Virus record (IMG/VR): IMGVR_UViG_3300020578_000037
Location: 20,689-84,688 of that record
Direction: 5' to 3' (one strand)
Source: a virus
DNA: 64,000 nt
This document shows, piece by piece, positions 1 through 62,922 of the stretch. Every line of letters starts with the position of its first letter. Positions within the stretch are counted from its first letter, which is position 1. The position numbers were made by a program, and so were the translations under genes. Below the pieces are notes generated by a model. It worked only from the letters and a program-made list of their open reading frames with translations, was not told the origin of the DNA and ran no database searches.

Positions 1-607
1 AATGAAGTGGTAGCTGTCTAGGTGCTTCAAATAATTCAGCTATATACCTATTTTGTATTAATGTATGCTGTTCCAGGCAAATTGCGAATAATTTCTCGAG
101 ATTAGGTTTTAAAGTTCTCTCAACAAGCGAGCTATTAAATAAATCATAATTATACCACTGGTCATACTGTGGATCTCCTGTGTTATTTCTTCTAAATCTT
201 TGAGGAAATAAACCATGATGCGAAAGCCCTGCATCAATCCAATAAAAATATTCACTATTGAAAGGGTTGCTAGTGACCACTTCATTGAGCCAATCGGTCT
301 TCGAATACATAATTTCGTAGCATCTCATTGGCTCGAGTAAATTACTCGATTTAATTGGTTTCAATCTATCATATAGTTTGGTAGATTTAAGATCCAGTGG
401 TAATATTTTAATATTCTTATTGTGAGATGGCTCTAAAAACCTAGTAACTTTTGGTATGTGTTCTTCTGACGTATAAAGACATAAATTTACATCTGTATTC
501 AATATATTACGCAATGAATATAAGTAATGTAGTTCTCTAGACGTACGTCCGTTAAACTCTGTCTCGTATAAATCATAATATACGCATGAGATAAAGGTTA
601 CGCTCAT
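1..607 (-). CDS. HtrL/YibB-like putative glycosyltransferase (partial)
   Basis: Reads in from an ATG at 605-607 and runs off the window edge, so the C-terminus is missing; about 202 residues are visible. The stretch YWIDAGLSHHGLFP near the middle resembles the conserved core of the HtrL/YibB family, proteins linked to surface-sugar synthesis and thought to be glycosyltransferase-like. It follows the glycosyltransferase at 620-1954 with a 12-nt gap and has no promoter motif of its own, so it is probably its operon partner. Acting on a virion or host surface glycan is inference. The family call rests on a short motif and overall feel, not on an alignment. Confidence 0.5.
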   Translation of the reverse strand, partial: MSVTFISCVYYDLYETEFNGRTSRELHYLYSLRNILNTDVNLCLYTSEEHIPKVTRFLEPSHNKNIKILPLDLKSTKLYDRLKPIKSSNLLEPMRCYEIMYSKTDWLNEVVTSNPFNSEYFYWIDAGLSHHGLFPQRFRRNNTGDPQYDQWYNYDLFNSSLVERTLKPNLEKLFAICLEQHTLIQNRYIAELFEAPRQLPLH

Positions 608-14793: not shown

Positions 14794-14799
14794 ATTTCG

Positions 14800-14827
14800 A
14801 TTATAAAAGTGAGTTTATAAAAATCAA
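14800..14827 (-). promoter_or_regulatory. sigma70-type promoter, dut-gp44 operon
   Basis: -35 TTGATT (14822-14827), 16 nt, -10 TATAAT (14800-14805), 6 nt to the ATG. It lies back to back with the late octamer of the 14846 gene. Confidence 0.72.
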
Positions 14828-14832
14828 TAGTA

Positions 14833-14840
14833 AATAAATA
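14833..14840 (+). promoter_or_regulatory. Late-type octamer AATAAATA, 14846 gene
   Basis: AATAAATA ending 5 nt before the ATG at 14846. Early transcription of dut leaves leftward from the same gap. Confidence 0.65.
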
Positions 14841-14845
14841 TTATT

Positions 14846-15310
14846 ATGAGCGAAGAGCTTAATGAAATGGTCGGTGATTTGTTGTCACAGCTTAATGACG
14901 CGACTGAAAAAGCAAAACAAGCAGAAAAAGAGAAGAATCCGCTAACAAAAGAAAATATGGAAAAGTTTGTTATTGAAAAAGCAGGTAAACTTGTAGAGGA
15001 GAGTATTGAAGTTGTGTCAAATGTGAAGGATTACATATCTTCTGCTCCTGAGAGCAAGGATGTAGGGTCTCTTGCTGAGCTTATTGGTGCTACGGCAACT
15101 GCTATAGAGACACTCAACAAGATAATAGTTACGGACAAAAGAAATGATACAGTTATAAAAGCCAAAGAGATGGATATAGCGTCGCGAAAAGAATTAAAAG
15201 AAGTTGATAGTCAAAATAAACTACTGGCTACTAGAGAACAAGTATTTAAAATGCTAATAGACAGCGCGAATAAGAGTGCTAAAATTATTGATGCTGAGGT
15301 AATTGACTAA
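14846..15310 (+). CDS. Helical late protein, possibly small terminase (gp16-like)
   Basis: 154 residues, mostly helical, acidic at the start and with long charged helices. The second half (TVIKAKEMDIASRKELKEVD, then LATREQVFKMLIDSANK) looks like a coiled coil. Length and helical character resemble T4 gp16 (164 residues), the small terminase subunit that regulates gp17 during packaging, and no other gp16 candidate was seen. It is not beside gp17 as in T4, so this is a guess from shape. It lacks the capsid-leader pattern of other plus-strand late genes. Its stop overlaps the convergent gene by CTAA. Confidence 0.4.
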   Translation: MSEELNEMVGDLLSQLNDATEKAKQAEKEKNPLTKENMEKFVIEKAGKLVEESIEVVSNVKDYISSAPESKDVGSLAELIGATATAIETLNKIIVTDKRNDTVIKAKEMDIASRKELKEVDSQNKLLATREQVFKMLIDSANKSAKIIDAEVID

Positions 15311-35164: not shown

Positions 35165-35572
35165 ATGAATTTATTCGAACGTAAATTTAGTGTAGTTTTA
35201 GAAGCAGACGCAGCGCCAGCAGCACAAGAACCAACACCCCCTCAAGACGATAAAGAAGCTATGGCTCAAACATTAAATACAGCTACCCCAGAAGATTTTG
35301 ACATTAAGGGCAGAGAGCAAGTAGTTGATCAAAGAAAAGGTGAGCAAATTCAAGCACTTAAGGGATGGATTGAGCAGATTGATTCATTTATTACTTTTTT
35401 AAACGGTACAGATCAAGGGTCAATACAGATGCAATTACACGCTGCTCCGTGTGATTCTATTTTTGAAGATATGGCAAGAAGTGAGAAAAAGAAAATAGCT
35501 AGACTTGCTGCAGAGCTAAGCTCACTAAGCGAAGCTATGAAGGGTTATCTAATTTCGGCTAACGACAGATAG
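35165..35572 (+). CDS. Late protein with capsid-leader-like N-terminus, unknown
   Basis: 135 residues. It opens MNLFERKFSVVLEADAAPAA: an amphipathic leader ending VLE before Ala-Asp, close in form to the T4 major-capsid cleavage context FLTE before AE. Then an Ala/Pro/Gln linker and a helical body (LKGWIEQIDSFITFLNGTDQ, then KKKIARLAAELSSLSEAMKG). The first 20 residues, linker and late promoter match the 58424 protein, so the two are of one kind. Likely packaged in the head and trimmed (inference). It overlaps the primase gene end by 14 nt. Confidence 0.55.
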   Translation: MNLFERKFSVVLEADAAPAAQEPTPPQDDKEAMAQTLNTATPEDFDIKGREQVVDQRKGEQIQALKGWIEQIDSFITFLNGTDQGSIQMQLHAAPCDSIFEDMARSEKKKIARLAAELSSLSEAMKGYLISANDR

Positions 35573-51826: not shown

Positions 51827-51853
51827 ATTATATGCTAACCTCTTTATAATCAA
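51827..51853 (-). promoter_or_regulatory. sigma70-type promoter, 50587-51819 gene
   Basis: -35 TTGATT (51848-51853), 15 nt, -10 TATAAT (51827-51832), 7 nt to the ATG. It lies inside the 3' end of gp46. Confidence 0.55.
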
Positions 51854-53639
51854 CTTTACGGGTAATACCATTACTTTTTTCTAGATATATAATATCTCCG
51901 GTAGCCGCTTTAATGCTTTCTTTTCTATGACTTATAACCATGATACATTCATTAAATTTTTCTACTCTTTCTCTTAATATACCAATAACCAACTCCACAC
52001 CCTTTTCATCGAGACTCGAGTCAAATAATTCATCATATATACTAAAATTAAAAGATATATCTCCTTGAAGACGTCTGATGTCCATAAAGGTGAAAAGACA
52101 TGCTAAGTCAATATTTTTTCTCTCAGCACCGCTAAAATTAAAGTAAGAGCAGGGCTTACCCTTATTATCAACAATCTCTTCTTCAAAATATTCATTAAAC
52201 GTACAGATACAATTTGCGTCCATTTTCTTAAGGTAATAAGCAAGCTTACTATTAAACAGCTGCAACATTTTCTTTACAATATATGATTTTACACCTTCTT
52301 CGGATACAATAAACTTAACTACATCTAAGTTATTTAAAGATATTTTTAATTCCTCAATCTCATTCTTAACTGTCTCTAGCCTTTCGTTTTGTTCTTTAAT
52401 AAATGCATCAAATGAATCGTTGTCCTTTTCAATATCTTTAAGATCTTGTTCCAATTCTACTTGCCACTGGTTTAATTGATTTAATCTTTGCTGTAAGTTT
52501 TCTTTTTCTTTTAGTTTATGCTTATATGCATTGGTATCTTCTCTTAGTAACAGTAGCTTACTTTCAACAGTCTCGCGTGCTTTTTTAAATGTACTTTCAT
52601 CTTTCTTACCGCTCTCAATATCCAAATTATATGTATCTATTTCGGTATTAATCTTATTCTTTTCTGTTTTAATGTGATTTCTATCTGTATCCTTAATTGG
52701 GCGCAAACAAGTAGGGCATACATCTTTATCGGTGCCTACGTTAAGCAGCTTTTTATTAAGCTGTGTTATTAAGGTTGATTTTTCTGAAATAGAATGACGG
52801 ACTTCTTGCAGTTTTTTATCAATCTTTTCTATATTTTTCTCTTGTTCTATAATTTGCTTACCTAAGTCATCAACATTAGGTAGTTCAAAGTTAGTTAATT
52901 TTTTGCTTATATCATTTATTTCAACAATATTATTTTGCTTACGTGTTTCGTATTTTTCTTTCTTTCTTTGTTTTTCAATCAAGAAATTTTCTTTTTGTTT
53001 TTTATGATTTAAGATAGTTTTAGTAATTTCATCATGTTTCGCTACTTCTATATCATAAGTTTTCTTCTTTTCAGCTATATCTACCTTGAGCAAATTTAAC
53101 ATGTTTCCAAAAACACTAAGATTAAAGATATCTTCAATAAATTTTCTTTTCTCTTGCTTTTTCTTAGCCATAAACGGTATAGTATTATTAACCGTCATTA
53201 TTACGCAGTTTTGAAATACTTCAGGTGTACAGTTAAATTTTGATGTTATAAAAGCGTTAGTGTTTGAAATTGAATCTCTGGTTTTATCGTCTCCGTTTAT
53301 ATATATAAAACATTTTGATGGTTCTAATGTTCTTATAATTTGAAGTTCTTCCTTGCTATCAAAATTCTGAATAGTTACATCTAAAATAATTTCACAATTT
53401 TTTTTATTAATATTATTAATAATATTTTCCTTTTTGAGGTCACGTAAAGTCTCACCAAACACACCAAAATAAATTGCATCTGCTACTGTAGATTTACCTA
53501 CGCCGTTTCTTCTGTCTTCCTTATCCTTATTAATACCTGTAATAATATGAAGGCCTTTTTTAAAATCTATTACAACTGGCTGATTACCAACAGATAAAAA
53601 ATTCTTGATACTAATCTTATTAAATTGAATATGTCTCAT
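51828..53639 (-). CDS. gp46: Recombination exonuclease subunit gp46-like (Rad50/SbcC)
   Basis: 603 residues (T4 gp46 is 560). Walker A within RRNGVGKSTVADAIYFG near residue 45; long antiparallel coiled coils at about 180-300 and 320-430 with the zinc hook CPTC near residue 311; ABC signature FSGAERKNIDLACLF; Walker B FNFSIYDELFDSSLDEKG. With gp47 it resects DNA ends for recombination-dependent replication and degrades host DNA. The ATG overlaps the gp47 stop by 4 nt. Confidence 0.95.
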   Translation of the reverse strand: MRHIQFNKISIKNFLSVGNQPVVIDFKKGLHIITGINKDKEDRRNGVGKSTVADAIYFGVFGETLRDLKKENIINNINKKNCEIILDVTIQNFDSKEELQIIRTLEPSKCFIYINGDDKTRDSISNTNAFITSKFNCTPEVFQNCVIMTVNNTIPFMAKKKQEKRKFIEDIFNLSVFGNMLNLLKVDIAEKKKTYDIEVAKHDEITKTILNHKKQKENFLIEKQRKKEKYETRKQNNIVEINDISKKLTNFELPNVDDLGKQIIEQEKNIEKIDKKLQEVRHSISEKSTLITQLNKKLLNVGTDKDVCPTCLRPIKDTDRNHIKTEKNKINTEIDTYNLDIESGKKDESTFKKARETVESKLLLLREDTNAYKHKLKEKENLQQRLNQLNQWQVELEQDLKDIEKDNDSFDAFIKEQNERLETVKNEIEELKISLNNLDVVKFIVSEEGVKSYIVKKMLQLFNSKLAYYLKKMDANCICTFNEYFEEEIVDNKGKPCSYFNFSGAERKNIDLACLFTFMDIRRLQGDISFNFSIYDELFDSSLDEKGVELVIGILRERVEKFNECIMVISHRKESIKAATGDIIYLEKSNGITRKVDYKEVSI

Positions 53640-54706
53640 AGAGCTAATGCTTTTTTATACAGATCTAAACAATACTTTGATACATTGTTTTTATTCTCGA
53701 TGTCCAGAAGATTGACAAATTCTTCAATTGCTTTATTCATATCAACGCCAGATAAATCAAAATTTTGATCGTCAATAACAGCGATAGAATCATCATAAAG
53801 AGAATAATCAACGCTTAAGCTAAACGGCTTATAAGATGATATTTTTTGTATTAATGCATCGATTGTATCACTCGATATTTTTTTATCTATTATAAGTTTT
53901 ATAATATTATTTTCAATTTGCGCCTTTAAATTTTCAGATTTAGAAGCTTTTTGATCAACGAGATTAGAGATTGATATTTTTTTATGCTTAGGTGAGAGAG
54001 CGTTTTCATGAAAATCATATTTTAAATTAGGTATATCGAGAATGTAATACCCTTTAGAAGATTCTATATCACCGAAATCCATTTCAAACGGATTACCAAC
54101 GTAAACTATAGTCTTGTCATTATATTTACGTTCATCACGGAGATGAAAATGCCCGGTCATAATAAGAGTACCTTTATCTAGTAAATCCTTGGTTTTTAGC
54201 CCATGATCGCAAAGCTTGTGTAAATTCATTTTAAAACTTTCGATTTCCAAATGACCAAAAATAATATCGCTCGTCTCAATATTAGATATATCAGCACCCC
54301 AGGGCAAAAACGTGCATTTCTTACCGTACAGATTATGGTTTTCTATATTACTAATAATTCTAATATTTTTCCAGCCGTTTAAAATAGAAAGTGAATTAAT
54401 ATCTGTCCTGTCTTTATAAAACGAATCATGATTGCCTACTAATATTACAATATTAAAATTTTCCCATTCTTTTAAAATCTGATTAACGATATGGATGGTA
54501 TTAACAGCTATTTCATCTCTATAGTGATATACATCGCCAAGAATAACAATATCTTTTATATTTTTAGCTATAAGCTCTTGCTTAAGCCAGGTAGCCCATT
54601 TAATAGCAGTATCGTGCCATAAATTGCTATTTTGATGCACACCAATGTGTAAATCACCAATACAGCAAACCTGACTTTTATTAAGATTAATTTCCTCTGA
54701 CTTCAT
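53636..54706 (-). CDS. gp47: Recombination nuclease subunit gp47-like (Mre11/SbcD)
   Basis: 356 residues (T4 gp47 is 339). Metallophosphoesterase motifs in order: CIGDLHIGVHQ (about 15-25), VILGDVYHYRDE, LVGNHDSFYKD, and TGHFHLRDE, carrying the Asp/His/Asn ligands for two Mn ions. Helical C-terminal part binds gp46. The start overlaps the gp55 stop by 4 nt, so sigma factor and nuclease are translationally coupled. Confidence 0.95.
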   Translation of the reverse strand: MKSEEINLNKSQVCCIGDLHIGVHQNSNLWHDTAIKWATWLKQELIAKNIKDIVILGDVYHYRDEIAVNTIHIVNQILKEWENFNIVILVGNHDSFYKDRTDINSLSILNGWKNIRIISNIENHNLYGKKCTFLPWGADISNIETSDIIFGHLEIESFKMNLHKLCDHGLKTKDLLDKGTLIMTGHFHLRDERKYNDKTIVYVGNPFEMDFGDIESSKGYYILDIPNLKYDFHENALSPKHKKISISNLVDQKASKSENLKAQIENNIIKLIIDKKISSDTIDALIQKISSYKPFSLSVDYSLYDDSIAVIDDQNFDLSGVDMNKAIEEFVNLLDIENKNNVSKYCLDLYKKALAL

Positions 54707-55314
54707 GAAGCGGTGTTATAATTATCGTCATCGACCTTATCTGGCTCTACGTATATGTGTGCGCCACCCATTAGCTCCGGATTAATCATGTGTTCTGTAT
54801 AAACCTTTGCTCTATATTCATCTAATGCAGCGTGATGCTTATTTTCCTTCTTAATTCTATTAATAAAGGCATGAAACGCAATAGTTGTAAAGTACGAAAA
54901 AGGACTAAACCCTGTATCAAGCTTAAATTTTTTATTCCTTAATGCAGAGAACATTTTTACTATAGCATCTCCTATCATATCATCTTTATAAGAATAATTG
55001 ATAAAGTTGGGAGCATAAGATAGACCGTTAGCAATTTTAGTGAGGCTTTCTCCGAGCTTTGTTGTTATATGCCCAGATTTATAATACTGTCTTATTTCTT
55101 CTTCGAATTCTTTTCCGTTAACATAATGCACCTTATCTTTAGCTGCAGTTTTTTTAGCTGATGGTGTAACTACTGGTACCTGTATTACTCCAGTTTCAAT
55201 TATTTTCTTCAGCTCGGGATCGAGCTGAGATGTATTACTCTTCTTTTTTAAAGAGCTGGTTTTCTTAACTTTCAATAATTTCTCTGGTAGAGTATTTAAT
55301 TTTTTCTTTTTCAT
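54703..55314 (-). CDS. gp55: Late-transcription sigma factor gp55-like
   Basis: 203 residues (T4 gp55 is 185). The first 65 residues are a basic Lys/Ser extension overlapping uvsW by 50 nt. The conserved core YKDDMIGDAIVKMFSALRNK, then FKLDTGFSPFSYFTTIAFHA and FINRIKKENKH, is the sigma region 2-like element that in T4 recognises TATAAATA. The many NWTAAATA octamers in the window are its expected targets. The C-terminus (ending NYNTAS) lacks an obvious hydrophobic clamp-binding tip as in T4. No earlier alternative start was seen. Confidence 0.9.
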   Translation of the reverse strand: MKKKKLNTLPEKLLKVKKTSSLKKKSNTSQLDPELKKIIETGVIQVPVVTPSAKKTAAKDKVHYVNGKEFEEEIRQYYKSGHITTKLGESLTKIANGLSYAPNFINYSYKDDMIGDAIVKMFSALRNKKFKLDTGFSPFSYFTTIAFHAFINRIKKENKHHAALDEYRAKVYTEHMINPELMGGAHIYVEPDKVDDDNYNTAS

Positions 55315-56728
55315 AAAGGTTTATACGTTTGCCCATGTGAGCATGACTATACTTAAATTCATCAGCAATGTCGAATATTATAAGCTTATCCTTATCCTTA
55401 TGCAAGCGAAGGCCTCTACCTATCGATTGGACGATCTTAATTTTAGCTTTGCCTCCGCATGCAAAAATAATAAAATGCAAATTTTTAATATTAATGCCTG
55501 TTGAAAATATTTTCGAAATAGCTACAACAACAATATCATTTCTATTTTCCATTAATGTTCTAATCTTTTCTCTTTCAGCTACTTCTACTTCACCGCGAAT
55601 AAAATAAACCTGCTTATCCGGACATACTTCTTTTATAACTCTATAAAGAGCTTCACCGTGTTCTATAAAATCGACGAGTATTAACGAATTGTTAGTTAAT
55701 TTACATGCGACTTTTGCTATAACCTGATTTCTAAAATTATTTCTAATTAAAAATTTTTGCTCTTCTCTGTAGAGATTGGTTGATGAAATAACAACATCTT
55801 TAAACGGGTCTTCCTTATACTTCAAAATTAAGATTTGTACTTGTACATTACTTACATAGTTTTCTAAGCGTAATTCATGACTATGTTTTTCATAAATTAT
55901 AGGTCCTATCTTACCTATAATATTCCATTGATCTATTAAACCTTCAGGCATAGTTCCTGTAAACCCGAATCTTACGGGTGTTTTAATAATCTTAATAATC
56001 TTATTAATTTCATTTCCTTTTCTAATTTTATGTACCTCATCTACAAATAATGCATCAATAGACGAGATCCAGGATAGATCAGTATTCTTACTTTGTAATA
56101 TTCCAAGATTTGCTATGACAACATTACCGAGATTATTGGTATCTAAATGAGAACTACCTGTCCATTTTTGAATTTTAAAAGGAACATTATAGCTTGTAAA
56201 GTCACCGTATGTTTGCTCTACTAACCCAAGATCGGGTACTATGTACAGGCATTTAAACTTATTACCATGAAGTAAAAATAGTTTAGTTAAAAGAGAAGCT
56301 GCTGTAAGTGTTTTTCCGCCTGCAGTTGCTAGTACAATTGTACCTCTCCCAACAGAAAGCGCTTTTTTTACTATATCGGTTTGATAATCACGAAGCGGTA
56401 TAGATAGAGGGACTATTTCAGTGTTGAACTGTGTATTATTACACCATGTTTTTGATGGTCTTACTATATCATACAATTCATCGTCTGTCTTAACATCACC
56501 AACGTATTGAGTATTAACTAAATGCTTTCTAATTTCATAATAAAGACCGGAATCAAATCTACCTGTAGGAGTAATACAATATGTGCGCTGCGGAAGAAAT
56601 CTTCCATATTTTCGCCTTACAAAAAAAGCAGCTTCATTTTTTACAGAAAAAGCTTCGCGAATATCTTCTAGATTGTCTCCAGAAATTATGCCACAGTTTT
56701 TTTTAGTATCATAAGAAAATGTGATCAT
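55265..56728 (-). CDS. uvsW: UvsW-like recombination helicase
   Basis: 487 residues (T4 UvsW is 503). SF2 motifs: Q-like PLRDYQTDIVKKA, motif I ATAGGKTLTAASLL near residue 140, motif II FVDEVHKIRKGNEI near 229, motif III GFTGTMPEG, IV-VI NSLILVDFIEHGEALYRVI and IVQSIGRGLRLHKDKDK. T4 UvsW unwinds R-loops and branched DNA, switching replication from origin- to recombination-driven. Overlaps gp55 by 50 nt and abuts uvsY. Confidence 0.93.
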   Translation of the reverse strand: MITFSYDTKKNCGIISGDNLEDIREAFSVKNEAAFFVRRKYGRFLPQRTYCITPTGRFDSGLYYEIRKHLVNTQYVGDVKTDDELYDIVRPSKTWCNNTQFNTEIVPLSIPLRDYQTDIVKKALSVGRGTIVLATAGGKTLTAASLLTKLFLLHGNKFKCLYIVPDLGLVEQTYGDFTSYNVPFKIQKWTGSSHLDTNNLGNVVIANLGILQSKNTDLSWISSIDALFVDEVHKIRKGNEINKIIKIIKTPVRFGFTGTMPEGLIDQWNIIGKIGPIIYEKHSHELRLENYVSNVQVQILILKYKEDPFKDVVISSTNLYREEQKFLIRNNFRNQVIAKVACKLTNNSLILVDFIEHGEALYRVIKEVCPDKQVYFIRGEVEVAEREKIRTLMENRNDIVVVAISKIFSTGINIKNLHFIIFACGGKAKIKIVQSIGRGLRLHKDKDKLIIFDIADEFKYSHAHMGKRINLYEKEKIKYSTREIIES

Positions 56729-57117
56729 GTAGTTTCAAGCTTAATAATGTCTACTAAATTCTTAATGTCGTATGATGTAGAGCTGAGTGTTTTCTCAGAC
56801 TTTTCAAGCAATTCAATAATTAATTCTGTTTGCTTTATCTTTGTATCAGCTTCTACAATATCACTATGCTTTTCTGCTGTGCGCTCTATTACTGGGATTG
56901 CTAATTTAACAGGGCTTTGTTCTTGAATCTTTTCTACTAATTCTTTCTTAATAAGTTCTCTTCTTTTCTTTAAATCAATTAGTTCTAACTTATGTCTTAT
57001 GCATCTGCCTGCCCATTTATGCTTAATACCGGGTAATTTTAACTGATAATCTTTAAGAATAAGCTCGTCTATTTTTAAGTCGTTCTCTAGTTCTTTTATA
57101 TATTCGTCTAACAGCAT
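56725..57117 (-). CDS. uvsY: UvsY-like recombination mediator
   Basis: 130 residues (T4 UvsY is 137). Helical: LLDEYIKELENDLKIDELIL, LKLPGIKHKWAGRCIRHKLE with a KW core matching the T4 KWLN region, then KRRELIKKELVEKI, and EADTKIKQTELIIELLEKSE, SYDIKNLVDI at the end, matching T4 in order. UvsY loads UvsX on gp32-coated ssDNA. The ATG overlaps nothing upstream and is first in the uvsY-uvsW-gp55-gp47-gp46 operon, a grouping expected for the recombination machinery. Confidence 0.72.
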   Translation of the reverse strand: MLLDEYIKELENDLKIDELILKDYQLKLPGIKHKWAGRCIRHKLELIDLKKRRELIKKELVEKIQEQSPVKLAIPVIERTAEKHSDIVEADTKIKQTELIIELLEKSEKTLSSTSYDIKNLVDIIKLETT

Positions 57118-57118
57118 T

Positions 57119-57126
57119 AATAAATA
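57119..57126 (+). promoter_or_regulatory. Late-type octamer AATAAATA, 57142 gene
   Basis: AATAAATA, 15 nt before the ATG, sharing bases with the minus-strand -10 of the uvsY promoter. The larger spacing may be forced by the overlap. Confidence 0.5.
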
Positions 57127-57151
57127 ATAACATAAAGTATTATGAAATCAA
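57124..57151 (-). promoter_or_regulatory. sigma70-type promoter, uvsY operon
   Basis: -35 TTGATT (57146-57151), 16 nt, -10 TATTAT (57124-57129), 6 nt to the ATG. The -35 lies inside codons 2-4 of the divergent 57142 gene. Confidence 0.72.
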
Positions 57152-57399
57152 TAGGTTTATTTGAAGCTGCTTTTATAAAAACACTTAATGAAGATAATGT
57201 TGCAGGTGGTATTGGTAGTGTTTTCGGTCCTGGAACTTTATTTGCAATAGGTACCTCGGGCAATCAATTTCCTTCTCAAACTGACAATGCATATGCCCCG
57301 GGAGATTCAAGGGTGCCTAAAGCTTTAGGGCTTAAGAAAAAGGGTAAAAAAACAAAATTAAAAATACAAAGAAGGCCTTTGCCAGGCTTAGAGCTGTAA
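57142..57399 (+). CDS. Small basic late protein with capsid-leader-like N-terminus
   Basis: 85 residues. It opens MKSIGLFEAAFIKTLNEDNV: LFE before Ala and LNE before Asp are candidate processing sites. The middle is Gly/Ser/Thr-rich, and the end is very basic (GLKKKGKKTKLKIQRRPLPG), suited to binding packaged DNA. Unrecognised. It starts a plus-strand late run. Its promoter shares bases with the uvsY promoter, so early leftward and late rightward transcription are probably exclusive here. Confidence 0.55.
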   Translation: MKSIGLFEAAFIKTLNEDNVAGGIGSVFGPGTLFAIGTSGNQFPSQTDNAYAPGDSRVPKALGLKKKGKKTKLKIQRRPLPGLEL

Positions 57400-57411: not shown

Positions 57412-57831
57412 GTGGAACTAGGACATTGGATTCTCGGAGATTCAGTAAAACTGGAAGAATCTACGTTCGGCTTTATTTACGAAATAACTAATACCGCAAC
57501 AAATAAAAAGTATATTGGTAAAAAACAATGTAAGTCGAAGCTTAAAAGAGCTCCGTTAAAAGGAAGAAAGAATAAGCGAATTGAAATAAAAGAATCTGAT
57601 TGGAGAGAATATACCAGCTCTTCTACAGAGCTAAATGAAGATATAAAAAAATACGGTAAGGATAAATTTATTTTTAAAATTTTAAAAACTTGTAATTCAA
57701 AATGGGAGTTAGCCTATTTTGAAATATTTGAGCAAATTAAAAATAATGTTTTATTAAGAGATGATTATTATAATGGTATTATAAATGTAAGAATAGGTCG
57801 ACCGCCAAAAAAATTTCTTGAACAAATTTAA
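57412..57831 (+). CDS. GIY-YIG-family nuclease domain protein
   Basis: 139 residues from a GTG. GFIYEITNTATNKKYIGKKQ is the GIY-YIG strand pair, WREYTSSSTELNEDIKKYGK and DKFIFKILKTCNSKWELAYF, then EIFEQIKNN with a probable catalytic Glu, complete the domain. Free-standing phage proteins of this form include Seg-type homing endonucleases, but this one is short, has no clear DNA-binding tail, and sits among late genes. It could instead act in DNA repair or cut host or rival DNA. Start GTG at 57412 is 12 nt after the previous stop. Confidence 0.7.
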   Translation: MELGHWILGDSVKLEESTFGFIYEITNTATNKKYIGKKQCKSKLKRAPLKGRKNKRIEIKESDWREYTSSSTELNEDIKKYGKDKFIFKILKTCNSKWELAYFEIFEQIKNNVLLRDDYYNGIINVRIGRPPKKFLEQI

Positions 57832-60171: not shown

Positions 60172-61382
60172 TCACATTCGCACAGTTTATTACTGAGGGT
60201 GGTGTAGCTGGGCATATGGCGCATCCTTTCGATTTACCTGGAGCTAACAGTGGTAGCGGTCTTGTTTCAATTTTTAAAAAAATAGTAAAAAGCTTGCAAA
60301 CAAAACCTTCTGCAGTAAAGATAGATGGTCTTAATACGTCTATTAAATTAATAACAAACCAAGAAGGTAATAAAGAGTTTGCTATGGATAGGGGTTCTAA
60401 TAAAGTAGAAGATGTAGAGGGTGTTACTGTATCAAGATTAGCGCAAAGATTTCCAGAAGGACATGGTATGATTACAACGGGTAAAATAGTATTAGATATT
60501 TTTAACTCTGCTATACCTACAATAGAAAAAGAATTAAAAAAGCTTAAGATGTGGGATAACAATAAAATTCTTTTTAATATGGAATATGTTCAAGGCTCGA
60601 CAAATGTGATAGGCTATGCAAATAATTTTTTAGCTATACACGGTTTAAATGAAATAATAAAAGTCAGAAGCCCAGTAAGAGGAAGTGTAAGCAGAGCATC
60701 GCGTGAAATTTCATATGATAAGAAAGCATTAATGTCACTTATTGAGAAAGTTAAGCCTATAGCATTAAAACAGAATTTTGATGTCGTAAATGAAATAGGT
60801 GTAGAATTAAAAAAGAATGTTGACTTTAATTCTGTTTTAAATTCTGAGTTTGCTGTGACTAAGGATTCAAGGACGTTTGATAAAAAGCCCTTACAATCAT
60901 GGTTATCAAAAGCAAAAAACCCTAGAGCTGAAAAAATTACTCTTGTAGATGGAAGGAAGATATCAGCTATGAGTTTAGAGAATTATAAAAATATTAAAAC
61001 AGGTGTACCTTTAAATTCTTATGCAAAAACTCCTAAAGATGTGCAGAAGGCTATAGATGGTGCAGTATTTTATCACGCAACTATTGTATTAGGAGATGCT
61101 ATAAAAACACAGGCTTCATCAAAACTAGGTGAATTAGATAAGCAAGAAGGTATAGTTGTACGTGATCCTTCTATATCTTCTAACCCAGTAAAAATTACCG
61201 GTAGTTTTATAACTGGAAAAGAATTAGGTAAATTTGCTAGGCGCGGTGAAAATGAAGAGTATGGTGTTCAAGGTCAGCTTGCTAATTCTGACAGAGTTAA
61301 TAAAAATAATAATTATATAACATCACCTCCTTACAGTAAAAACATCTTACATGGTCATCTTACACCGGGAATGAATATATGA
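60168..61382 (+). CDS. Ligase-like covalent nucleotidyltransferase with capsid leader
   Basis: 404 residues. Leader MITFAQFITE before Gly-Gly is almost the T4 internal-protein form. GHMAHPFDLPG follows. Motif I K51-I-D53-G54, motif Ia-like MDRGS at 73-77, motif III FNMEY at 136-140, motif IV EGIVVRD at 327-333 and a VKITG motif V near 341 fit the RNA/DNA ligase and capping superfamily. The wide III-IV gap holds an insertion. It should form an enzyme-AMP and seal or cap nucleic acid, exact substrate unknown. Coupled both ways by ATGA overlaps to the nuclease-like and nucleotidyltransferase-like genes. Confidence 0.7.
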   Translation: MITFAQFITEGGVAGHMAHPFDLPGANSGSGLVSIFKKIVKSLQTKPSAVKIDGLNTSIKLITNQEGNKEFAMDRGSNKVEDVEGVTVSRLAQRFPEGHGMITTGKIVLDIFNSAIPTIEKELKKLKMWDNNKILFNMEYVQGSTNVIGYANNFLAIHGLNEIIKVRSPVRGSVSRASREISYDKKALMSLIEKVKPIALKQNFDVVNEIGVELKKNVDFNSVLNSEFAVTKDSRTFDKKPLQSWLSKAKNPRAEKITLVDGRKISAMSLENYKNIKTGVPLNSYAKTPKDVQKAIDGAVFYHATIVLGDAIKTQASSKLGELDKQEGIVVRDPSISSNPVKITGSFITGKELGKFARRGENEEYGVQGQLANSDRVNKNNNYITSPPYSKNILHGHLTPGMNI

Positions 61383-62032
61383 AATTCTACGAGCTTGTCC
61401 TAGAAATTCTTCAACATCAAAAAAATAATCTTATTGTTGTTTTTCCGGGTAGATTTCAACCTTTTCATGAAGGGCATAAGAAAATTTACGATTTAGCTAA
61501 AAAACAATTTCCTGGTGCAGATTTTTTTGTAGCTACATCTGATGAAATAGCTAAGGCAAAAGACCCTGAGCGCTATCCATTTAATTTTGCTGAAAAAAAA
61601 GCAATCATGATAGCCGCCGGTGTTCCAGAGAATGAAATTAAATTAGTGAAGCAACCTTACAAGCCTTTAGAAATTTTAAAAGAGTATGATCAAAATATAG
61701 CGAAAGTTATTTATTTAGTAGGTAAAAAAGATATGGAATCGGATCCTAGGTTTGCATTTGGTACTACTACTAAAGGTACACCTACTTACTTTCAACCTTT
61801 TACAGACTTAAACTCAATGCAACCATTTAAAGAACAAGGTGGGCATGGATACATTTACGCACCAACAACTGTAGAATTTAATTTAAATGGTAGAAAAATT
61901 ACAAGCGCTTCGGAGTTGAGGAATCTATATAAAAATTCAAACAATATACTGAGAAAAGATATTATTAAAGCAGTCTTAGGCGGAAAATTTAATCCAAAAA
62001 TCTATAATTTGTTTAACAATAAAATAAAATAA
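61379..62032 (+). CDS. NMNAT/cytidylyltransferase-like nucleotidyltransferase
   Basis: 217 residues. GRFQPFHEGH at 24-33 is the HxGH nucleotide-binding motif of the cytidylyltransferase/NMN adenylyltransferase superfamily; VIYLVGKKDM near 110-119 and ITSASELR at 174-181 (the ISxTxxR-type motif) complete it. It joins NMP to a small phosphate compound, for example NMN to ATP for NAD+, but the substrate is not decided by sequence here. The first 16 residues (MKFYELVLEILQHQKN) precede the family start and end in a VLE-like element, a possible short capsid leader. ATGA overlap with the ligase-like gene. Confidence 0.75.
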   Translation: MKFYELVLEILQHQKNNLIVVFPGRFQPFHEGHKKIYDLAKKQFPGADFFVATSDEIAKAKDPERYPFNFAEKKAIMIAAGVPENEIKLVKQPYKPLEILKEYDQNIAKVIYLVGKKDMESDPRFAFGTTTKGTPTYFQPFTDLNSMQPFKEQGGHGYIYAPTTVEFNLNGRKITSASELRNLYKNSNNILRKDIIKAVLGGKFNPKIYNLFNNKIK

Positions 62033-62634: not shown

Positions 62635-62922
62635 ATGTTATTTGAAAGAGCGTTTCTAAATGCATTAGAACGGGATATACTAGAAGAAAGTAAAGGCTCA
62701 CGTTGCACTAAAGTAACAGGACAACAATCATCAACGCGCTCTGACAAAAAATATATGAGATGTGTAAAGTCGGGTAGTGGTTATAAAAAAATACATTATG
62801 GTGATCCGAATTTAAGAATTAAAAAATCAAATCCTAAAAAAAGAAAATCTTTTAGAGCTAGACATAAGTGCTCTTCTGCAAAACCCGGTACACCTAAGTA
62901 TTATAGCTGTAAAAACTGGTAG
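62635..62922 (+). CDS. Small basic Cys-containing late protein with capsid leader
   Basis: 95 residues. Leader MLFERAFLNALERDILEESK has ILE before Glu. Then a very basic body with four Cys (RCTK, RCVK, KCSS, SCKN) and the ending KSFRARHKCSSAKPGTPKYY-SCKNW, a motif I recall from several marine T4-like phages (impression). Possibly a small zinc-binding, DNA-contacting head protein. Late octamer 5 nt upstream. Overlaps the convergent deaminase-like gene by 22 nt. Confidence 0.55.
   Translation: MLFERAFLNALERDILEESKGSRCTKVTGQQSSTRSDKKYMRCVKSGSGYKKIHYGDPNLRIKKSNPKKRKSFRARHKCSSAKPGTPKYYSCKNW

What the first reader, a model, noticed from the sequence alone, without database searches (positions are those of the whole stretch)
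57117..57151. Overlapping early and late promoters as a one-way switch
The uvsY -10 (57124-57129) and the late octamer (57119-57126) share bases, and the uvsY -35 lies in codons 2-4 of the divergent late gene. RNA polymerase cannot occupy both, so gp55-dependent late firing here would shut the recombination operon that itself encodes gp55: a possible negative feedback.
Basis: partly seen in the sequence, partly recalled or inferred. Interest (0 to 1): 0.6.

Follow-up and report, generated by a model that had tools for sequence, protein, structure and literature searches.

The report
Back-to-back early and late phage promoters
In a large family of uncultured freshwater viruses of bacteria, the early promoter of the DNA-repair genes that also encode the late-gene switch protein shares bases, on the opposite strand, with a late promoter, so turning on late genes should physically shut that early operon; nothing has been measured in the laboratory yet.

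Summary
TTGATT-N16-TATTAT precedes uvsY on the minus strand, AATAAATA lies on the plus strand, and they share 57124-57126. It is more than chance. The uvsY promoter follows a rule seen across this phage: 8 early-type promoters have spacer 16 and lie exactly 6 nt from the start codon. Typical late octamers lie 5-7 nt from it. Both spacings put the predicted +1 at or within about 2 nt of the start codon (leaderless mRNA); T4 and S-PM2 show nothing like it. In 71 non-redundant relatives, 59 keep an NWTAAATA octamer overlapping the uvsY -10, in four registers; among other early promoters of five genomes only 2 of about 107 do. gp55 lies downstream on the same strand in 59 of 60 relatives with enough sequence. 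So the overlap is conserved and specific to uvsY. The switch/feedback reading fits and is sharpened by one anomaly: the octamer keeps its place relative to the uvsY -10, not to the divergent start codon (gaps mostly 15 or 23-26 nt). Whether late firing silences the operon is untested, and the operon may have other promoters. Known kind (competing divergent promoters), new variant.

The parts
57119..57126 (+). T4-type late promoter octamer AATAAATA; predicted late +1 at 57132
   Evidence: octamer first base = -13 as numbered in PMC2988020
57124..57129 (-). uvsY early promoter -10, TATTAT; shares 57124-57126 with the octamer; predicted +1 at 57117, the A of the uvsY ATG
   Evidence: strongly conserved in relatives
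57146..57151 (-). uvsY early promoter -35, TTGATT, inside codons 2-4 of the divergent ORF
   Evidence: kept at spacer 16 even where the divergent start codon has moved
57121..57123 (-). TTA discriminator triplet right after the -10; it completes TAAATA on the + strand and is the base evidence for selection on the late strand
   Evidence: 1.56/1.07/1.67 bits; other early promoters favour A at the first position, 68%
56725..57117 (-). uvsY recombination mediator
   Evidence: phrog_231 E 5.7e-12, PF11056
55265..56728 (-). uvsW helicase
   Evidence: phrog_16 E 3.8e-64
54703..55314 (-). gp55 late sigma factor, same operon
   Evidence: phrog_234 E 1.7e-26; same strand downstream of uvsY in 59 of 60 relatives
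53636..54706 (-). gp47 (SbcD-like)
   Evidence: phrog_100
51828..53639 (-). gp46 (SbcC-like)
   Evidence: phrog_77
57142..57399 (+). divergent 85-aa gene, presumed late; N-terminus ends in a LNE/AGG motif resembling a prohead-protease site (inference)
   Evidence: no family; homologues opposite uvsY in most relatives

Best explanation
The intergenic region is a compact back-to-back early/late promoter. Early in infection host sigma70-type polymerase starts the uvsY-uvsW-gp55-47-46 operon from TTGATT-16-TATTAT, with +1 at the uvsY start codon (leaderless mRNA). Once gp55, with the clamp, makes late polymerase, that polymerase opens the AATAAATA box on the other strand and transcribes the divergent gene. 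Because the two -10 boxes share three base pairs and the predicted starts are 15 bp apart, one polymerase excludes the other, so strong clamp-activated late firing should shut the early operon, including gp55. Shown: the elements, their overlap, their conservation and specificity, the operon. Inferred: that the octamer is an active promoter here, the exclusion, the shut-off and the feedback.
For: Early rule TTGNNN-16-TANNNT-6-start in 8 genes of the record, those identified being replication, recombination or nucleotide genes plus one glycosyltransferase (dUTPase, primase, gp32, UvsX, gp43, UvsY). Late rule NWTAAATA-5..7-start in front of gp18, gp19, gp25 among others. Overlap in 59 of 71 non-redundant relatives, 28 of 33 after thinning, in registers +3, +2, -4 and +5; the UvsY tree needs several register changes, though it is short and poorly resolved in places. 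Control: 2 of about 107 other early promoters. The TTA completing the octamer is nearly as conserved as the promoter itself, most spacer bases are not. Octamer position is locked to the uvsY -10 while its gap to the divergent start varies: 15 in 24 loci, 23-26 in 27, 10 or less in most of the few others. gp55 downstream on the same strand in 59 of 60. Competition at bidirectional promoters when one side is activated is measured in E. coli (PMC12825309).
Against: No transcript data. The octamer gap of 15 (23-26 in others) is atypical for the late genes of this clade, so it may be weak or not a promoter for that gene. Five relatives keep TAAATA but have C at the W position. Early-like matches lie inside the operon, one just upstream of gp55, so occlusion need not remove gp55. 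If sigma70 transcription ends globally in late infection, the overlap adds little. Relatives are not independent.
Confidence: 0.55

Rival explanations
1. Both promoters are real and overlap, but the overlap is only genome compaction: a divergent late gene needs a promoter in a 24-36 bp gap, and AT-rich boxes share bases. Exclusion happens but has no regulatory weight because sigma70 transcription ends anyway.
For: Short intergenic regions (mostly 24-36 bp); several other divergent early/late or late/late promoter pairs in the same genomes.
Against: Compaction would put the octamer at the usual 5-7 nt from the divergent start, i.e. in the uvsY spacer; L203 (about 5 nt) and L200-L202 (8 nt) show that positions near this are possible. 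Most relatives instead keep it on the -10. Other early promoters do not overlap an octamer (2 of about 107).
Confidence: 0.3
2. The + strand TAAATA is not a late promoter; the conserved TATACTATTATTTA block is a site for another regulator of uvsY, or a special discriminator.
For: The octamer is oddly far from the divergent start; TATAC next to the -10 is also fairly conserved; five relatives have C at the W position.
Against: TAAATA survives when the -10 itself changes to TATATT or TATAAT and the register shifts (+2, -4), with perfect TATAAATA in the -4 loci L200-L203. In the window TATTATTTA is not enriched (9 against 7.4 expected) and at least three of its other copies are late octamers read backwards.
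Confidence: 0.12
3. Chance resemblance in AT-rich DNA.
For: Window is 68% A+T; single octamers are common by chance.
Against: NWTAAATA and TTG-16-TANNNT are sharply placed before start codons and the overlap is kept in 59 of 71 relatives.
Confidence: 0.03

Closest known systems
Bacterial bidirectional promoters (E. coli; PMC12825309)
   Same: Overlapping -10 boxes on opposite strands; one polymerase excludes the other; repression of one side when the other is activated
   Different: There both sides are bacterial promoters; here one side would be sigma70 and the other the phage gp55 holoenzyme, giving an ordered early-to-late hand-over (inferred)
RB49 / S-PM2 genes with both early and late promoters (PMC2984593)
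   Same: Early and late T4-type promoters combined at one place
   Different: There both promoters serve the same gene and are thought to give middle expression; here they face apart. No early promoter in five genomes of this clade overlaps a same-strand octamer (0 of 112)
T4 late promoters (TATAAATA, gp55/gp33/gp45; PMC2988020)
   Same: Octamer, gp55 homologue, octamers in front of structural genes
   Different: NWTAAATA consensus, usually 5-7 nt from the start codon (leaderless or nearly so) instead of 9 nt or more, mostly with a visible Shine-Dalgarno site, in T4
phi29 early-late switch, promoters A2c/A2b and A3 (PMC3100819, abstract)
   Same: Early and late promoters close together, one turned off as the other is turned on
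   Different: Done by proteins p4 and p6; here proposed as direct polymerase competition

Membership tests
sigma70-type early promoter | -35/-10 hexamers at 16-18 bp, ahead of an early gene | tested here: met
   TTGATT-16-TATTAT before uvsY; same architecture before the other early-type genes
T4-type late promoter | octamer close to TATAAATA | tested here: met
   AATAAATA; A at the first position also occurs at nine T4 sites
T4-type late promoter | phage encodes gp55 | tested here: met
   phrog_234
T4-type late promoter | usual spacing to the start codon in this clade (5-7 nt) | tested here: not met
   gap 15 here; mostly 15 or 23-26 in relatives
T4-type late promoter | gp55-dependent start one helical turn downstream | not testable with these tools
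   needs 5'-end mapping
T4-type late promoter | drives a late gene | tested here: inconclusive
   divergent gene has no family match
bidirectional promoter | overlapping recognition elements on opposite strands | tested here: met
   57124-57126 shared; 59 of 71 relatives
bidirectional promoter | measured divergent RNAs and competition | not testable with these tools
   no RNA data
RB49-type combined early/late (middle) promoter | late octamer overlapping the early promoter on the same strand | tested here: not met
   0 of 112 early promoters

The most novel reading that the evidence does not exclude
The late octamer is kept by selection for blocking the uvsY-gp55 promoter rather than for expressing the divergent gene: a self-limiting switch in which the late sigma factor turns off its own early operon by competing for the same -10 DNA, in a phage clade whose early and late messages are mostly leaderless.
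Probability: 0.33. Interest if true: 0.75.

Novelty: new variant of a known kind. Interest (0 to 1): 0.6.

Why it matters
If true, a phage sigma factor limits its own operon by direct promoter competition, with no repressor, and the arrangement is conserved through a diverse freshwater phage group. The start-codon-abutting promoters may also explain why standard late-promoter prediction failed in pelagimyophage genomes (failure reported in PMC7029224) and give a simple way to annotate start sites and early/late classes in uncultured T4-like phages.

Tried and rejected
DNA search in public phage records found no relative of the region, and UvsY had no tblastn match there, so the comparison rests on IMG/VR contigs. 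An alternative start codon placing the octamer 5-7 nt from the divergent gene was looked for and not found: 57132-57134 is ATA and out of frame, and gaps 6 and 7 give TAA and AAA. The exact TATAAATA count is depleted in the window (5 against 20.8), so the strict T4 consensus was dropped for NWTAAATA. Chance was rejected on comparative data. Host could not be named: no tRNA in the window; the only genome contigs match was a distant one on a Lachnospiraceae MAG contig. HTVC008M, T4 and S-PM2 carry uvsY in other surroundings, so the divergent arrangement could not be studied in a cultured phage.

Full report
What is there. The window is part of an 84,688-base IMG/VR virus record, a T4-like phage far from cultured phages. 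On the minus strand lies uvsY-uvsW-gp55-gp47-gp46 with overlapping ends. On the plus strand, 24 bp away, an 85-aa gene of no known family starts at 57142. Between them the sequence reads, on the plus strand, CAT TAATAAATAATAACATAAAGTATT ATG AAA TCA ATA.

A promoter grammar. Listing upstream sequences and measuring motif-to-start distances showed two sharp classes. TTGNNN-16-TANNNT stands exactly 6 nt before the start codon in 8 genes of this record (plus one at 5). Those identified are dUTPase, primase, gp32, UvsX, gp43, UvsY and a glycosyltransferase. NWTAAATA stands 5-7 nt before the start in 21 of the 27 octamers found within 50 nt upstream of a start, including gp18, gp19 and gp25. Four related contigs (140, 158, 129 and 162 kb, read mostly or nearly whole) show the same: 35 of 53, 38 of 55, 25 of 39 and 46 of 63 octamers at 5-7. 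T4 and S-PM2 stretches show none below 9; HTVC008M is mixed, with 7 of 14 at exactly 5 and no SD visible there, and the more distant ones (18 or more) with SD-like purine runs in most. With the -10 at -12 to -7 (general knowledge) and the late box starting at -13 (PMC2988020), gaps of 6 and 5 both place +1 on the start codon. The signature is the one used to call leaderless genes in bacteria (PMC3160421). Leaderless is an inference from spacing; no 5' ends were seen.

The overlap is conserved and specific. In 71 non-redundant uvsY upstream regions 59 have NWTAAATA on the opposite strand overlapping the uvsY -10: offset +3 in 42, +2 in 11, -4 in 5, +5 in 1. After thinning to below 80% identity it is 28 of 33. 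Among 112 early promoters in five genomes, 6 overlap, 4 of which are uvsY, so 2 of about 107 others. Where the register shifts, the -10 changes (TATTAT, TATATT, TATAAT) and the octamer survives, as perfect TATAAATA in L200-L203. A UvsY tree needs several changes of register, but it is short, has long branches and is only partly resolved. Column information peaks at the -35, the -10, the TTA that completes the octamer, and partly at TATAC in front of the -10; the rest of the spacer is weak.

The anomaly. The octamer keeps its distance to the uvsY -10, while its distance to the divergent start is 15 in 24 loci and 23-26 in 27; elsewhere in the clade 5-7 is the rule. In L203 (about 5 nt, taking the second ATG) and L200-L202 (8 nt) it sits near the usual place. 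This is what one would expect if position on the -10 itself matters, but a leadered late message, or descent from one ancestor with little room to change, are not excluded.

Mechanism. Best reading: competing back-to-back promoters that hand over from sigma70 to gp55 polymerase. In E. coli, bidirectional promoters compete when one direction is strongly activated (PMC12825309). gp55 lies downstream of uvsY on the same strand in 59 of 60 relatives with enough sequence, so the early shut-off would include gp55. Against a strict feedback loop: early-like and octamer matches occur inside the operon (e.g. 55377-55405 upstream of gp55), gp55 already made would persist, and host-type transcription may end anyway.

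Verdict. Observation confirmed and strengthened; interpretation plausible, partly supported, untested by experiment. The wider finding is the start-codon-abutting early and late promoters of this freshwater T4-like clade; a search of the open literature found no description of this in T4-like phages, but subscription papers were not searched.

Noticed in passing
whole window; contigs G001, G003, G005, G006: Early and late promoters sit 6 and 5-7 nt from start codons, implying mostly leaderless messages for promoter-proximal genes; Shine-Dalgarno-like sites are rare (4 of 84 genes in the own record).
   Followed up: yes
HTVC008M (L079, L209, L210): Cultured pelagiphage with two kinds of late genes: octamer at exactly 5 nt without SD, and octamer 18-30 nt away, mostly with an SD-like purine run.
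   Followed up: partly
57142-57399, 62635-62922, 35165-35572: Several late-promoter genes begin with a similar LFE..F N-terminus; in the divergent gene of many relatives it runs through L.E into an AGG-like stretch, resembling head-protease target sequences.
   Followed up: partly
57412-57831 (+): SegE-like GIY-YIG homing endonuclease next to the divergent gene (PF19835); T4 segE also lies next to uvsW.
   Followed up: no
55377-55405 (-): TTGCAT-17-TATAAT inside uvsW, about 60 nt before gp55: a possible second early promoter for gp55.
   Followed up: no
whole window: Exact TATAAATA is depleted: 5 copies against 20.8 expected, as if avoided away from promoters.
   Followed up: no
14794-14845: Another divergent early/late pair (dUTPase early promoter, late octamer for the gene at 14846) without overlap of the boxes.
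   Followed up: partly
61379-62032 (+): Protein with GRFQPFHEGHKK, a nucleotidyltransferase-like motif, seen by eye only.
   Followed up: no
L211: UvsY relative (37%) on a 239-kb contig of a goat-gut Lachnospiraceae MAG, probably a large phage.
   Followed up: no
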